Below the pieces are notes generated by a model. It searched no databases. It saw only the letters and a list, made by a program, of their open reading frames with translations, and had not been told where the DNA came from. A stretch of DNA of 64,000 nt, taken from Porticoccaceae bacterium (GTDB lineage Bacteria; Pseudomonadota; Gammaproteobacteria; Pseudomonadales; Porticoccaceae). A program made the translations under genes and the position numbers. Positions within the stretch are counted from its first letter, which is position 1. Each line of letters starts with the position of its first letter. The stretch is taken from assembly GCA_024644595.1 (NCBI GenBank), contig JAHEHL010000005.1, positions 124,001 to 188,000 on the forward strand. Direction: 5' to 3'. Positions 37,915-41,420 of this stretch are shown piece after piece.

Positions 37915-38169
37915 TTGGCTACTATTGAATTTAATGAGTCTGAGAAAGCGGAAATAGTCGACAAGATAAAGCGCTATTTTCAGCAGGAGCTGGATCAGGA
38001 TATCGCCCAGTTTGATGCCGAATTCCTGCTCGATTTCTTCTCCGAGCAAGTTGGCGGATATTTTTATAACCGGGCGCTTGAAGATGCGCGAACGATTCTT
38101 GAAGACAAGCTTGAAACGATTGCTGATGCTTTTTATGAGATTGAAAAACCGGTCGACCATCGGCGTTAG
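37915..38169 (+). CDS. DUF2164 family protein with TTG start
   Basis: The 84-residue protein matches DUF2164: FNESEKAEIVDKIKRYF, then ELDQDIAQFDAEFLLDFFSEQVG, then FYNRALEDA and a helical tail. No ATG or GTG exists between the previous stop (37903) and the conserved start region. TTG 37915 has AGGTGA (37902-37907) with seven bases of spacing; TTG 37909 is the alternative. The ribosome site overlaps the stop of the hydrolase gene, so translation is probably coupled. The family function is unknown. An automatic start at an ATG inside the upstream gene (37795) would add 40 false residues. Confidence 0.82.
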   Translation: MATIEFNESEKAEIVDKIKRYFQQELDQDIAQFDAEFLLDFFSEQVGGYFYNRALEDARTILEDKLETIADAFYEIEKPVDHRR

Positions 38170-38197: not shown

Positions 38198-38572
38198 TTA
38201 GGCGTTGTATAAGCTCCAACCCACACTTAACCAAACAATACTGCATATCAGCAGCGCGAAGAAGACAGCCGCCGATCCAGTATCTTTGGCAAGCCCCGAG
38301 AGCTCGTGGTGTTCCAAACCAATTCGGTCGACAGCCGCTTCGATTGCAGTGTTCAGTAGCTCGACAATAATCACAAGTAATACCGAGCAGACCATTAGCA
38401 GACGCTCGCTCAATGACACGTCCAGCCAGCAGGCCAGCGGGATCAAAAAAAGCGCGGCAATCACTTCTTGTCGGATGGCGGCCTCATGAATAATGTTGTG
38501 TTTAAGTCCGCGGTAGGAATACACCGTGGCATAGGCAATGCGGCTGATTCCAGTGCGTTTCTTTAATTCCAT
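38198..38572 (-). CDS. dgkA: Diacylglycerol kinase
   Basis: The 124-residue membrane enzyme matches the small trimeric DgkA family (122 in E. coli). It has an amphipathic N-terminal helix (GISRIAYATVYSYRGLK), a catalytic acidic residue near EAAIRQE, and the conserved VELLNTAIEAAVDRIG (about 69-84), with Glu, Asn and Asp for ATP and magnesium. Three transmembrane helices follow the expected pattern. It phosphorylates diacylglycerol to phosphatidate. It overlaps the PAP2 gene by 10 bases and is the last gene of the eptA operon, where it would recycle the diacylglycerol released by EptA. Confidence 0.95.
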   Translation of the reverse strand: MELKKRTGISRIAYATVYSYRGLKHNIIHEAAIRQEVIAALFLIPLACWLDVSLSERLLMVCSVLLVIIVELLNTAIEAAVDRIGLEHHELSGLAKDTGSAAVFFALLICSIVWLSVGWSLYNA

Positions 38573-39288
38573 TTTGTGTCTCCGTCAGTTGTTGTTGCTG
38601 CGCCGCTGTCGGCAAAAACACAAAAGCGGGGATAGAGAAGCATAGGCACAAACCAGCAGATTGCCAGTGTCCAGATATCGTGGGAGAGAAAATGCGCTCC
38701 CCGCAGTTGCTGGGCGACACCGTAAATAATACCTAGTGTAAGGCCAAAAAATAACGCTGGATACTTGCTTGCGGGGCGCAACATAAGTGCGACAAAATAG
38801 AGTGCCACCCAAGCATAGCCCGCGCTGGCATGTCCGGCAGGAAAGCATCCGGACTCGCCATTAAAACCATTAAACCACTCAATCATATGTTGGCTGCCGC
38901 CGAATGCTGCGACCGACCAGGGGCAGGGAATACCGGAGAATTTTTTTAGTAGGTTAATTGTGATAATCGAAACGAAGACACTCAGCGTCAGGTATTTCAG
39001 CGGTTGACGATAAGTTCTGCCCGCCGGTAAAAAGCACAGTGCCAGCGCAGTCAAAAACAGCAGCGCAGTAAACTGTCGCCCCCCTTTATGAATAATATCT
39101 TCAAGCAGGAAACTGTTGCGCAGTTGCCAGTTCGGCGCATGACTGTTAAATATCATTGAGGCCAGCGTTTCGTCTACTTGCAACCGATTCACCAGCGCTA
39201 AAACAAACGCCAGTAGCAGGGCCGGTAAGAGGCCATGATAGAGATAAAAGTTCTCTGGTAGCTGAGTTCTTAGAGGAGCTTGGTTCAT
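38563..39288 (-). CDS. PAP2-superfamily membrane phosphatase
   Basis: The 241-residue protein has about six transmembrane helices and the three PAP2 phosphatase motifs: KKFSGIPCPW (about 115-124), CFPAGHASAGY with the conserved GH (about 147-157) and RGAHFLSHDIW (about 194-204), with the nucleophilic histidine. Members act on lipid A, undecaprenyl diphosphate or phosphatidate. Its place between eptA and dgkA in one operon suggests a lipid A or lipid-phosphate role. A similar pairing is known for the mcr-1-pap2 cassette. The end of eptA overlaps its start by four bases. The specific lipid cannot be assigned. Confidence 0.88.
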   Translation of the reverse strand: MNQAPLRTQLPENFYLYHGLLPALLLAFVLALVNRLQVDETLASMIFNSHAPNWQLRNSFLLEDIIHKGGRQFTALLFLTALALCFLPAGRTYRQPLKYLTLSVFVSIITINLLKKFSGIPCPWSVAAFGGSQHMIEWFNGFNGESGCFPAGHASAGYAWVALYFVALMLRPASKYPALFFGLTLGIIYGVAQQLRGAHFLSHDIWTLAICWFVPMLLYPRFCVFADSGAATTTDGDTKWN

Positions 39289-40940
39289 GACTGATGTTTG
39301 CAGTTGCGGAAAATATCCATGGCAGGGTCGTAAACCGTACTCTCTATGCTGAGCATTCCGAGTATCGAACTAAACAGATTGTCATGGGAGATCGGTTTGG
39401 CGGCATCGCGCTTGAGACACTCTTTCTCGATATCGAAGCGCTCGGCGAAGCTGTCAGACAACCAGGCCAGCATTGGGATACCGACCTGCTCGCTGGGCGC
39501 CATAAAATAGGGCGCTGCGTGTAAGTAGATACCCTTTTCGCCCAATGACTCGCCGTGATCTGACAGATAGATGACTGCTGTATGGTAGGTTTTGCTGAGC
39601 TCATCAAGTCGTTCGATAACCTTGGAGACGAACAGATCGGTGTATAAGATCGTATTGTCGTAGGCGTTGACGATTTGCTCATGGGAGCAATCCTGAAGCT
39701 GGCTGGTTTTGCAGGTCGGGGTGAATTGTGCAGCTTCTTCCGGCACCTGCTTATAGTAGGCCGGACCGTGACTTCCCTGCTGGTGCATAACAATAACCTG
39801 ATCCTGCGGATCAGGCTGATCTAGCGCTTGAAGCATAACCATATCAAAGCAGTGCTCACTGTCACAGTTAGCGGGGTCATTGGCGATGGGGATTTGTCGA
39901 GTGCGTACACAGACGCCTTTGCAGCCGCTGTTGTTATCGATCCAGGCGACATCAAGTCCGGCATGGTCGATCAGGTCGAGCAGGTTTTCACTCGCCGCTG
40001 CAGCTTTACGAGAGAAATTGGCTCGTTGCTGCGCAGCAAACATACAGGGCAGCGATACCGCAGTTGAGGTGCCGCAGGCGCTAACATTTGGGAAATAGAT
40101 AATATCCTTGCTTGCTAGATTAGGATTGGTGTTGCGGGCATATTTCGACAGCGAAAAATTGGCTGCGCGTGCGGTTTCGCCGACAATAAGAACAAACAGC
40201 AGCGGCTTTTCGCTGGGTTGTTTCCAGAGCTCATTGAGGTGGGCAGAGTCGTCCAGTGGACTGACCTGCTGCGTGATCTTTTCCGATTCAGAAACTGCTT
40301 TAGCAACGCCGTAAACAATATTGCTCGGCGTTACCAGATAGCGAATCTCCTTGTGCGTGCGCATTACTGAGGCTAGGGTCTGATAGCTGGGTAGGCAAAG
40401 CGCCAGCGCCATAATCAGGCCTGTCAGCGACATCAAGGTTTTTTTGATCAGACCTTTTGTGCTGTGGTCCTGAGTGATATCTAGCCGGTAAAGAACGAAT
40501 GCTGGGATCAGGGCGTAGACAGTAAAGTGCAGTAGATATGACGGAGTAAACAACTCTAAGGCTTCACGGCGGTCAGTTTGCAGAACATTGGTGATCATTC
40601 CGGAGTCGATATAGACTCCGTATTGCTCGATAAAGTAAGAGCCCATTGCGGCACTGACCACCAATGTGATCAGACTGTATTTGTGCCAAGGTAGCAGAGC
40701 CGTAATCGTGAGCAGAAGAAAACAGACCGCTGTCGCTAGAACAAAAAAGGCAAAATAGAAATAGATTGATGATGCATTGTGAATGCCAACAATCTTGTAG
40801 AGGCTCAACCAGAGAGAGTCGTTATACAGTGCAGTTAGAAATATCGCCAGTAAGACATTAGCCGTGTTGTAACTAATTGTCTTGGTGTTAAAGAGTGAGG
40901 CGAGATTTTTCGTCAGTGAGATAATGAAGAGTTTGCGCAT
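39285..40940 (-). CDS. eptA: Phosphoethanolamine-lipid A transferase
   Basis: The 551-residue protein has five N-terminal transmembrane helices (to about residue 190) and a periplasmic alkaline-phosphatase-fold domain. The metal site is seen in VGETARAANFSL (Glu about 255), with the catalytic threonine in SACGTSTAVSLPC (Thr about 291) and YLSDHGESLGEKGIY (about 460-474). It transfers phosphoethanolamine from phosphatidylethanolamine to a lipid A phosphate, releasing diacylglycerol. It heads the operon eptA-PAP2-dgkA, and a PmrA-box-like element lies 44 bases upstream. Cys pairs in CKGVC and similar suggest the usual disulfides. Confidence 0.95.
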   Translation of the reverse strand: MRKLFIISLTKNLASLFNTKTISYNTANVLLAIFLTALYNDSLWLSLYKIVGIHNASSIYFYFAFFVLATAVCFLLLTITALLPWHKYSLITLVVSAAMGSYFIEQYGVYIDSGMITNVLQTDRREALELFTPSYLLHFTVYALIPAFVLYRLDITQDHSTKGLIKKTLMSLTGLIMALALCLPSYQTLASVMRTHKEIRYLVTPSNIVYGVAKAVSESEKITQQVSPLDDSAHLNELWKQPSEKPLLFVLIVGETARAANFSLSKYARNTNPNLASKDIIYFPNVSACGTSTAVSLPCMFAAQQRANFSRKAAAASENLLDLIDHAGLDVAWIDNNSGCKGVCVRTRQIPIANDPANCDSEHCFDMVMLQALDQPDPQDQVIVMHQQGSHGPAYYKQVPEEAAQFTPTCKTSQLQDCSHEQIVNAYDNTILYTDLFVSKVIERLDELSKTYHTAVIYLSDHGESLGEKGIYLHAAPYFMAPSEQVGIPMLAWLSDSFAERFDIEKECLKRDAAKPISHDNLFSSILGMLSIESTVYDPAMDIFRNCKHQS

Positions 40941-40983
40941 TGTAAAACGTCTCTGAATTTTGCGCAGAGTCTATTTACAAAAC

Positions 40984-41000
40984 CTTAAGGCACTATTAAG
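40984..41000 (-). promoter_or_regulatory. PmrA-box-like operator upstream of eptA
   Basis: Read on the minus strand the site is CTTAAT-AGTGC-CTTAAG, two half-sites with five bases between, which fits the PmrA consensus HTTAAD-N5-HTTAAD. It lies 44 bases before the eptA ATG, where PmrA boxes sit in known pmrC/eptA promoters. It implies control of eptA-PAP2-dgkA by a PmrAB-like two-component system; no such genes are in this window. Confidence 0.65.
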
Positions 41001-41046
41001 TAAGGCTCATAAGTCGAGCTCATAAGTCGAGCTTGCAAGTCAGGCT
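40995..41046. repeat. 13-bp tandem repeat between eptA and phhB
   Basis: Two exact copies of CATAAGTCGAGCT (41008-41020 and 41021-41033) are followed by a related unit TGCAAGTCAGGCT and preceded by a degraded one (ATTAAGTAAGGCT). The array sits next to the PmrA-like box, between two divergent genes, and may affect either promoter. Confidence 0.75.
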
Positions 41047-41081: not shown

Positions 41082-41420
41082 ATGATTGTGCTTAAACAGC
41101 AGCATTGTGAACTGAGTCGGTCTGACTCAGTGGCGGTTAGCGATACCGAGCTCAAAGGTTTTATCAATCAGATACCTGACTGGCAGATTTTAGAGCGCGA
41201 TAATATCAGACAGCTCGAAAGGACATTTCGGTTTGCAAGCTATCGCGCAGCGCTGGTATTTACCCAGCGCGTTGGCGAGTTGGCTGAAGCGGAGGATCAC
41301 CATCCGGTAATAGTCACCGAGTGGGGCAGGGTTCGTGTCAGCTGGTGGACGCACACCATTAGAGGCTTACATCTCAATGATCTGATCTGCGCCGCAAAGA
41401 CCGACCAGCTGGCAGATTAA
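41082..41420 (+). CDS. phhB: Pterin-4a-carbinolamine dehydratase
   Basis: The 112-residue protein matches PhhB/PCD. The active-site histidines are in [17 protein letters not shown] (about 69-85), followed by [15 protein letters not shown] (about 87-101). It dehydrates 4a-hydroxytetrahydrobiopterin during regeneration of the cofactor of phenylalanine hydroxylase; phhA is not in this window. It is convergent with folE, and the two stop codons share the tetranucleotide TTAA (41417-41420). Confidence 0.93.

What the first reader, a model, noticed from the sequence alone, without database searches (positions are those of the whole stretch)
38198..41000. Coupled eptA-PAP2-dgkA operon behind a PmrA-box-like operator
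Three overlapping genes encode a phosphoethanolamine-lipid A transferase, a PAP2 lipid phosphatase and a diacylglycerol kinase. EptA releases diacylglycerol, and DgkA would return it to phosphatidate; the phosphatase could dephosphorylate lipid A or an undecaprenyl lipid. Upstream, CTTAAT-N5-CTTAAG matches the PmrA half-site pattern on the minus strand at 44 bases before eptA. The set looks like one regulated envelope-remodelling unit with built-in by-product recycling. The operon parts are known elsewhere; the combination and the operator in this lineage are the points of interest.
Basis: partly seen in the sequence, partly recalled or inferred. Interest (0 to 1): 0.6.

Follow-up and report, generated by a model that had tools for sequence, protein, structure and literature searches.

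The report
PmrA-type switch for lipid A operon
A small-genome bacterium carries a three-gene set that should decorate its outer membrane and recycle the waste lipid, behind a control site that relatives share and whose likely regulator sits in an iron-uptake operon bearing the same site; the gene set is known elsewhere, the wiring is the newer part.

Summary
On the minus strand, eptA (39285-40940), a PAP2 phosphatase (38563-39288) and dgkA (38198-38572) overlap, behind CTTAAT-N5-CTTAAG (40984-41000). The operator is not chance: a perfect CTTAA-N6-CTTAA pair precedes 37 of 80 eptA operons in the order, with none at spacings N0-N5 or N7-N14 and 16 of 2073 control windows, and a TAnnnT -10 element follows 10 nt on. 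The genome has two OmpR-type regulators: PhoB and a PmrA/QseB-type one. The latter lies in a T_hemolysin/acyl-ligase/SDR/RR/HK/cupredoxin/FTR1 operon headed by the same box, perfect or with one mismatch, in 5 of 5 genus genomes whose operon head was read and perfect in 30 of 40 sampled relatives. Congener G016 has the operon but neither box nor sensor kinase. The gene combination and DgkA recycling are published for mcr/eptA loci. The wiring (regulator operon plus eptA-PAP2-dgkA under one operator) was not found in my paper searches. Binding, signal and PAP2 substrate are untested; the sensor lacks an ExxE motif.

The parts
39285..40940 (-). eptA-like lipid A phosphoethanolamine transferase, 551 aa
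   Evidence: NF028537 565 bits (cut-off 500); best PDB match 5fgn (lipooligosaccharide phosphoethanolamine transferase A) E 4.2e-107; E255, T293, H391, D461, H462, H474 invariant in 6 aligned sequences
38563..39288 (-). PAP2-family phosphatase, 241 aa, with HxxxH where the usual C3 motif has HxxxD
   Evidence: HxxxH in 38 of 41 PAP2 proteins of eptA loci, the motif not readable in the other 3
38198..38572 (-). dgkA, prokaryotic diacylglycerol kinase, 124 aa
   Evidence: aligns to E. coli DgkA with terminal gaps only, ELLNTAIEAAVDRIG stretch conserved
40984..41000 (-). PmrA-type operator CTTAAT-N5-CTTAAG (direct repeat)
40968..40973 (-). putative -10 element TAGACT, 10 nt after the box
   Evidence: TAnnnT at the same distance in 41 aligned boxes, T .68, A .71, T .80; same geometry in 10 of 10 genus sites looked at (8, 2)
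41082..41420 (+). flank: pterin-4a-carbinolamine dehydratase, divergent neighbour
   Evidence: same flank by eye in G002 and G023 and in the empty sites
37915..38169 (+). flank: DUF2164 gene, convergent neighbour

Best explanation
This is a PmrA/QseB-regulated envelope-remodelling operon. Inferred chain: a sensor kinase encoded elsewhere in the genome phosphorylates its OmpR-type response regulator, which binds the CTTAA direct repeat overlapping the -35 region and activates a sigma-70 promoter whose -10 lies 10 nt downstream. EptA moves phosphoethanolamine from phosphatidylethanolamine to lipid A phosphate, leaving diacylglycerol; DgkA rephosphorylates that diacylglycerol to phosphatidate; the PAP2 protein most likely trims a lipid A phosphate (for instance a 1-diphosphate) so that EptA has its acceptor. 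The same operator heads the operon that encodes the regulator pair together with an FTR1 iron permease, so the regulon is probably autoregulated and tied to metal uptake. Shown by sequence: genes, overlaps, operator, spacing, -10 geometry, conservation, a matching regulator and its own box, and absence of both box and kinase in G016. Inferred: binding, activation, signal, enzyme substrates.
For: Spacing-specific conservation, 37 of 80 operons, 13 families; in a second, partly overlapping set of named genomes 9 of 79 upstreams are perfect at N6 and 0 at every other spacing N0-N15; fixed -10. Only two OmpR-type regulators in the genome, PhoB and the PmrA/QseB type. Recognition helix SNALEVHIHNLR against TNTLEVHIHNLR in E. 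coli PmrA; of the K. pneumoniae PmrA contact residues named in PMC3973317 (passages), Arg171, Asn188, Glu191, Val192, His193, His195, Arg198 and Arg210 are kept, Thr187 is Ser and Lys153 is Arg. The regulator operon has the box in 5 of 5 genus genomes whose operon head was read, perfect in 2 and one-mismatch in 3, and perfect in 30 of 40 sampled order loci. Genus co-occurrence: kinase orthologue in 8 of 39 genomes, one of them a contig-edge fragment; in the 35 genomes searched for both, 5 of the 6 with an intact transferase have it (hypergeometric 9e-4; phylogeny not corrected). lpxC is present, so lipid A should be made. DgkA needed for EptA-type resistance in E. coli carrying a Vibrio operon: PMC12064563 (passages); PAP2 hypothesis: PMC7559476 (section 3).
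Against: No binding or expression data. Regulator and kinase fall below the PmrA, QseB, QseC and PmrB cut-offs. 43 of 80 operons lack a perfect box, as do 70 of 79 in the named set and 10 of 40 T_hemolysin loci. G016 keeps the operon without box or kinase; G029 has the kinase with no transferase found. dgkA is far commoner than eptA (240 against 80 of 390 genomes) and survives alone at the locus in G001, so it may have other work. No ExxE motif in the sensor.
Confidence: 0.85

Rival explanations
1. The box is a chance A+T-rich match and the operon is constitutive.
For: CTTAA-N6-CTTAA with up to one mismatch is not enriched in this genome (70 against 91); G016 has no box.
Against: 37 of 80 at N6 against 0 at N0-N5 and N7-N14; mononucleotide shuffles give a mean of 0.075 of 80; fixed -10 distance.
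Confidence: 0.03
2. The operator is real but is read by a regulator other than the T_hemolysin-linked PmrA/QseB type, or by more than one.
For: Pseudomonas BqsR reads TTAAG-N6-TTAAG, the same pattern (PMC4682146, passages), so the motif is shared by several regulators; regulators of a separate clade sit beside eptA and the same kind of box in other families.
Against: Only PhoB is left as another OmpR-type regulator in this genome, which is 98.86% complete; box and kinase are both absent in G016.
Confidence: 0.08
3. DgkA and PAP2 are not by-product partners of EptA; they are lipid housekeeping genes that merely share the transcript.
For: dgkA in 240 of 390 order genomes; G001 keeps dgkA at this locus without eptA and PAP2; G003 has dgkA with no EptA_B_N match.
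Against: Of 80 eptA loci, 44 hold a PAP2 match, 18 a DgkA match and 15 both, at over 80 bits; different gene orders recur, which argues for repeated association; published dgkA requirement.
Confidence: 0.12
4. The PAP2 protein acts on undecaprenyl pyrophosphate or phosphatidate rather than on lipid A.
For: E. coli PAP2 enzymes use undecaprenyl pyrophosphate (PMC7559476, section 3).
Against: Same section: mcr-1-linked hPAP2, which also departs from the usual His-Asp-His triad, gave no bacitracin resistance; the best NCBIfam match here is the lipid A phosphatase model, though at 57 bits against a cut-off of 275; HxxxH in 38 of 41, 3 unreadable.
Confidence: 0.3

Closest known systems
mcr-1-hpap2, mcr-3-dgkA and mcr-7 with both (PMC7559476, abstract and sections 2.1 and 3; PMC10285318, passages)
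   Same: Phosphoethanolamine transferase linked to PAP2 and/or dgkA; PAP2 with an altered catalytic triad; DAG recycling proposed
   Different: PMC10285318 finds no specific regulator with the mcr families other than mcr-8; here one overlapping operon stands behind a PmrA-type operator, and EptA scores below every MCR cut-off
Vibrio dgkA-eptA operon under RstAB/CarRS (PMC12064563, passages)
   Same: Two-component control of a co-transcribed dgkA and eptA; PAP2-dgkA-eptA context noted in the Fluvialis clade
   Different: Different gene order; regulator near the operon instead of in an iron-permease operon; RstA sequence and site not compared here
Enteric and Acinetobacter PmrA-eptA (pmrCAB) with YTTAAK or HTTAAD-N5-HTTAAD boxes (PMC10927774, PMC3973317, passages)
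   Same: Same half-site, same N5 spacing, box at a similar distance (E. coli eptA -63; here -60)
   Different: In E. coli basRS lies next to eptA; here the pair is in a separate T_hemolysin/FTR1 operon
Pseudomonas aeruginosa BqsRS (PMC4682146, passages)
   Same: TTAAG-N6-TTAAG operator, one pentamer serving both BqsR and RNA polymerase; ferrous iron and cationic stress
   Different: No BqsR sequence was compared, so orthology is untested

Membership tests
Phosphoethanolamine--lipid A transferase (NF028537) | Curated score cut-off | tested here: met
   565 bits, cut-off 500
EptA equivalog (NF008619) | Curated score cut-off | tested here: not met
   512.3 bits, cut-off 660
Any MCR family (NCBIfam) | Curated score cut-offs | tested here: not met
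   all listed MCR models far below cut-off, best 392.2 of 1075
Phosphoethanolamine--lipid A transferase (NF028537) | Catalytic Thr and metal-binding Glu/Asp/His | tested here: met
   E255, T293, H391, D461, H462, H474 invariant in 6 sequences; the residue roles are recalled from MCR-1
PAP2 lipid A phosphatase (NF028538) | Curated score cut-off | tested here: not met
   57.4 bits, cut-off 275; MCR-1-linked PAP2 model NF028536 38.4 of 475
DAGK_prokar (PF01219) | Curated score cut-off | tested here: met
   113.7 bits, cut-off 22.3; close alignment to E. coli DgkA
PmrA regulon member | CTTAA-type direct repeat with N5 between hexamers upstream of the gene | tested here: met
   40984-41000; conserved in relatives
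PmrA regulon member | Regulator is PmrA by curated cut-off | tested here: not met
   PmrA model best but 231.2 of 330 bits; QseB 196.5 of 345
PmrA regulon member | Regulator binds the box in vitro | not testable with these tools
   only recognition-helix identity is available
PmrB-type ferric iron sensor | ExxE motif in the periplasmic domain (recalled) | tested here: not met
   absent in the own kinase; present in 6 of 24 T_hemolysin-linked kinases; domain limits set roughly

The most novel reading that the evidence does not exclude
Across the order there is an undescribed core regulon: a PmrA/QseB-type two-component pair encoded inside a T_hemolysin/AMP-ligase/haem-oxygenase-like/SDR/TPR/RR/HK/cupredoxin/FTR1 operon switches on its own operon and the eptA-PAP2(-dgkA) operon through one operator, coupling metal uptake and an unknown acyl-lipid pathway to lipid A decoration; where the kinase is missing (G016) the eptA operon has been set free of the operator.
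Probability: 0.6. Interest if true: 0.6.

Novelty: new variant of a known kind. Interest (0 to 1): 0.45.

Why it matters
It links lipid A modification, the recycling of its by-product and an iron-permease operon in environmental gammaproteobacteria through one readable operator, gives a simple tag (CTTAA-N6-CTTAA plus TAnnnT 10 nt on) for finding the regulon, and offers a natural pair (own genome against G016) for how an operon fares when regulator and operator are gone. It also gives the T_hemolysin-family operon, whose product is unknown to me, a regulatory context.

Tried and rejected
Genome-wide box counting in the own genome: 9 against 2 for the YTTAAK form but 70 against 91 for CTTAA-N6-CTTAA with up to one mismatch, so I relied on conservation and spacing controls. 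Other perfect own-genome boxes (C4:505851, C4:175033, C8:121322) were not pursued; the first lies just before an FKBP-like gene (judged by eye). The simple promoter scan did not list the -10 found by alignment, and its 2 hits were below the shuffle mean of 3.7. The PAP2 profile found no PDB relative at E 0.01. Paper searches for 'thermostable hemolysin' with PmrA (0), with two-component and iron permease (0), and with response regulator and histidine kinase (4 papers, listing only, none opened) showed no description of this operon. 'PmrA box' with dgkA and eptA gave 0 papers. Search 71 asked for either term and was uninformative. PHROGs gave only families of unknown function. The species name of the window was not determined.

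Rows dropped: from the places I left out those with E above 1e-10 and four fragments (G024:C56, later read as L202; two of G093; one of G148) and added G002; L055 was dropped for lack of upstream sequence. In one search, 40 of the places listed were taken, about every third, skipping one already held (G024) and one contig-edge fragment (G061). In one search one of 80 loci had too little upstream. Of the 11 DUF2164 loci, three (G021, G004, G030) lie in another context and say nothing on the site.
Full report
WHAT IS THERE. The window's minus strand holds eptA (39285-40940, 551 aa), a PAP2-family gene (38563-39288, 241 aa) and dgkA (38198-38572, 124 aa), overlapping by 4 and 10 nt. Families: EptA_B_N and Sulfatase, PAP2, DAGK_prokar, all above the Pfam cut-offs; EptA passes NF028537 (565 of 500 bits) but neither the EptA equivalog nor any MCR model. 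Residues invariant in six aligned EptA sequences include E255, T293, H391, D461, H462 and H474 (roles recalled from MCR-1). The flanks are a DUF2164 gene and an alpha/beta hydrolase on one side, and pterin dehydratase and folE on the other.

DISTRIBUTION. In the relatives search (56 genomes, 35 of the genus) the close orthologue (59-66% identity) occurs in own, G002, G016 and G023, each time as eptA-PAP2-dgkA. DUF2164 was found in 11 of 39 genus genomes: beside the operon in own, G002 and G023; next to pterin dehydratase with no operon in four (G034, G018, G032, G420); with only dgkA between them in G001; in another context in three (gene identities by eye). G016 has the operon without the DUF2164 flank. 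G007 has an eptA remnant beside a transposase-like gene and G024 another remnant. In the order sample EptA_B_N is in 80 of 390 genomes and DAGK_prokar in 240 of 390. Among 80 fetched eptA loci, 44 hold a PAP2 match, 18 a DgkA match and 15 both, at over 80 bits; the contiguous order eptA-PAP2-dgkA occurs only in the four genus loci, while DgkA-PAP2-EptA (L049, L061, L073, L094) and EptA-RR-HK-DgkA-PAP2 (L046, L048, L053, L054) also occur. Among 80 named loci, L271 (Methylibium MAG) has eptA-PAP2-dgkA, and L247 (Amphritea opalescens), L255 (Halomonas MAG) and L286 (Pseudoxanthomonas mexicana) have the three genes in other orders. The combination is therefore a recurrent one.

THE OPERATOR. CTTAAT-N5-CTTAAG lies at 40984-41000. 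In the own genome YTTAAK-N5-YTTAAK occurs 9 times against 2 for the reversed control, but CTTAA-N6-CTTAA with up to one mismatch 70 times against 91 (4 perfect). Across relatives the picture is plain. Within 250 nt of the first gene of 80 eptA operons, a perfect CTTAA-N6-CTTAA (either strand) occurs in 37, in 13 families by the table; at spacings N0-N5 and N7-N14 in none, at N15 in 1. Of 29 permuted half-sites the best has 9 (TTAAC, a shifted reading of the CTTAAC form), the next 3; windows elsewhere in the same loci give 16 of 2073; mononucleotide shuffles a mean of 0.075 of 80. In a second set, named genomes, 9 of 79 upstreams have it at N6 and none at any other spacing N0-N15; this set overlaps the first at least in L295 = L058. 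Related sequences are not independent events, so these counts are not probabilities. Aligning 41 boxes (half-sites NTTAA) shows T(.68)A(.71)nnnT(.80) at positions 11-16 after the box, i.e. a sigma-70-like -10 element with the box over the -35; in the window it is TAGACT. All 10 genus sites looked at have TAnnnT there (8, 2). Orthologues: G023 ATTAAGAAAACCTTAAT and G002 CTTCAGAAAACCTTAAG (one mismatch each), G016 none. E. coli eptA has CTTAAGGTTGGCTTAAT at -63. Published PmrA sites are HTTAAD-N5-HTTAAD in Acinetobacter and YTTAAK in Salmonella (PMC10927774, passages), and BqsR reads TTAAG-N6-TTAAG (PMC4682146, passages).

THE REGULATOR. Trans_reg_C finds two proteins in the genome: PhoB (337 of 296 bits) and a protein whose best model is PmrA (231 bits, cut-off 330), then QseB (196.5 of 345); its kinase scores best with QseC (189.9 of 475) and PmrB (177.9 of 314). 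In a 59-row tree the regulator falls in a supported clade of 20 T_hemolysin-linked regulators, inside a larger, partly unresolved group that also holds E. coli QseB, PmrA and, on a long branch, PhoP; 15 of the 22 eptA-linked regulators form a separate clade. Its recognition helix is SNALEVHIHNLR against TNTLEVHIHNLR in E. coli PmrA, keeping Asn188, His193 and His195 of the base contacts modelled for K. pneumoniae PmrA, with Thr187 as Ser and Lys153 as Arg (PMC3973317, passages).

ITS OWN OPERON. The regulator pair lies in a run of genes T_hemolysin, AMP-binding ligase, Haem_oxygenas_2, SDR, TPR, RR, HK, cupredoxin, FTR1 and one without a Pfam match. The head of this operon carries the box in own, G023, G002 (one mismatch each) and G024, G215 (perfect), which are the five genus genomes whose head was within the stretch read. 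In G024 and G215 a distant EptA_B_N gene next door carries a second box (perfect and one mismatch). Of 40 T_hemolysin loci sampled from 126 positive genomes among 390, 30 have a perfect N6 box within 250 nt, 4 a pair at N5, none at other spacings N0-N15; 22 have the RR on the same strand within the stretch. In the genus, the kinase orthologue (at least 59% identity) is in 7 of 39 genomes plus a contig-edge fragment in G001; G016 has none, and no T_hemolysin. In the 35 genomes searched for both genes, 6 have an intact transferase (own, G002, G023, G016 and the distant type in G024 and G033) and 5 of these have the kinase: hypergeometric 9e-4, or 1e-4 if the G007 remnant is counted (relatedness not corrected). 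G029 has the kinase with no transferase found.

MECHANISM. Shown: gene content, overlaps, operator, spacing, promoter geometry, conservation, presence and own box of a matching regulator. Inferred: phosphorylated regulator activates both operons; EptA makes diacylglycerol, DgkA recycles it. [quoted passage not shown] coli laboratory strain (PMC12064563, passages), and linked hpap2 or dgkA gave maximal resistance with mcr-1 or mcr-3 (PMC7559476, abstract). The PAP2 protein, like hPAP2, departs from the His-Asp-His triad (HxxxH in 38 of 41 from eptA loci, 3 unreadable; PMC7559476 section 3); for hPAP2 the authors propose removal of an extra lipid A 1-phosphate. The signal is unknown: the own sensor lacks ExxE, though the FTR1 and cupredoxin neighbours point to metal.

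VERDICT. The genes are a known kind; the finding gains from the regulator operon, which shares the operator across the order and which my literature searches did not find described. Lipid A is expected because lpxC is present.

Noticed in passing
L190:8205-16748 (own genome C3), and L191, L192, L195, L198, L203-L242: T_hemolysin/AMP-ligase/haem-oxygenase-like/SDR/TPR/RR/HK/cupredoxin/FTR1 operon, often headed by the same operator; the product of its first four enzymes is unknown.
   Followed up: partly
L186:1260-1715 (G001): dgkA kept alone at the locus, with eptA and PAP2 missing, directly beside pterin dehydratase.
   Followed up: partly
L201:5831-7875 (G007); L202:4317-4838 (G024): eptA remnants, the first beside a transposase-like gene, suggesting decay of the transferase in the genus.
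   Followed up: no
window 41006-41044: Tandem repeat of 13 nt (CTCATAAGTCGAG twice, then a degenerate copy) just upstream of the box, between the two divergent genes.
   Followed up: no
L046, L048, L050, L053, L054, L062, L068, L070, L072: One family (f36) uses the form CTTAAC-N5-CTTAAC, outside the YTTAAK consensus, beside a regulator of a different clade.
   Followed up: partly
own genome C4:505851-505866, C4:175033-175048, C8:121322-121337: Three further perfect CTTAA-N6-CTTAA sites in the own genome; targets not established.
   Followed up: partly
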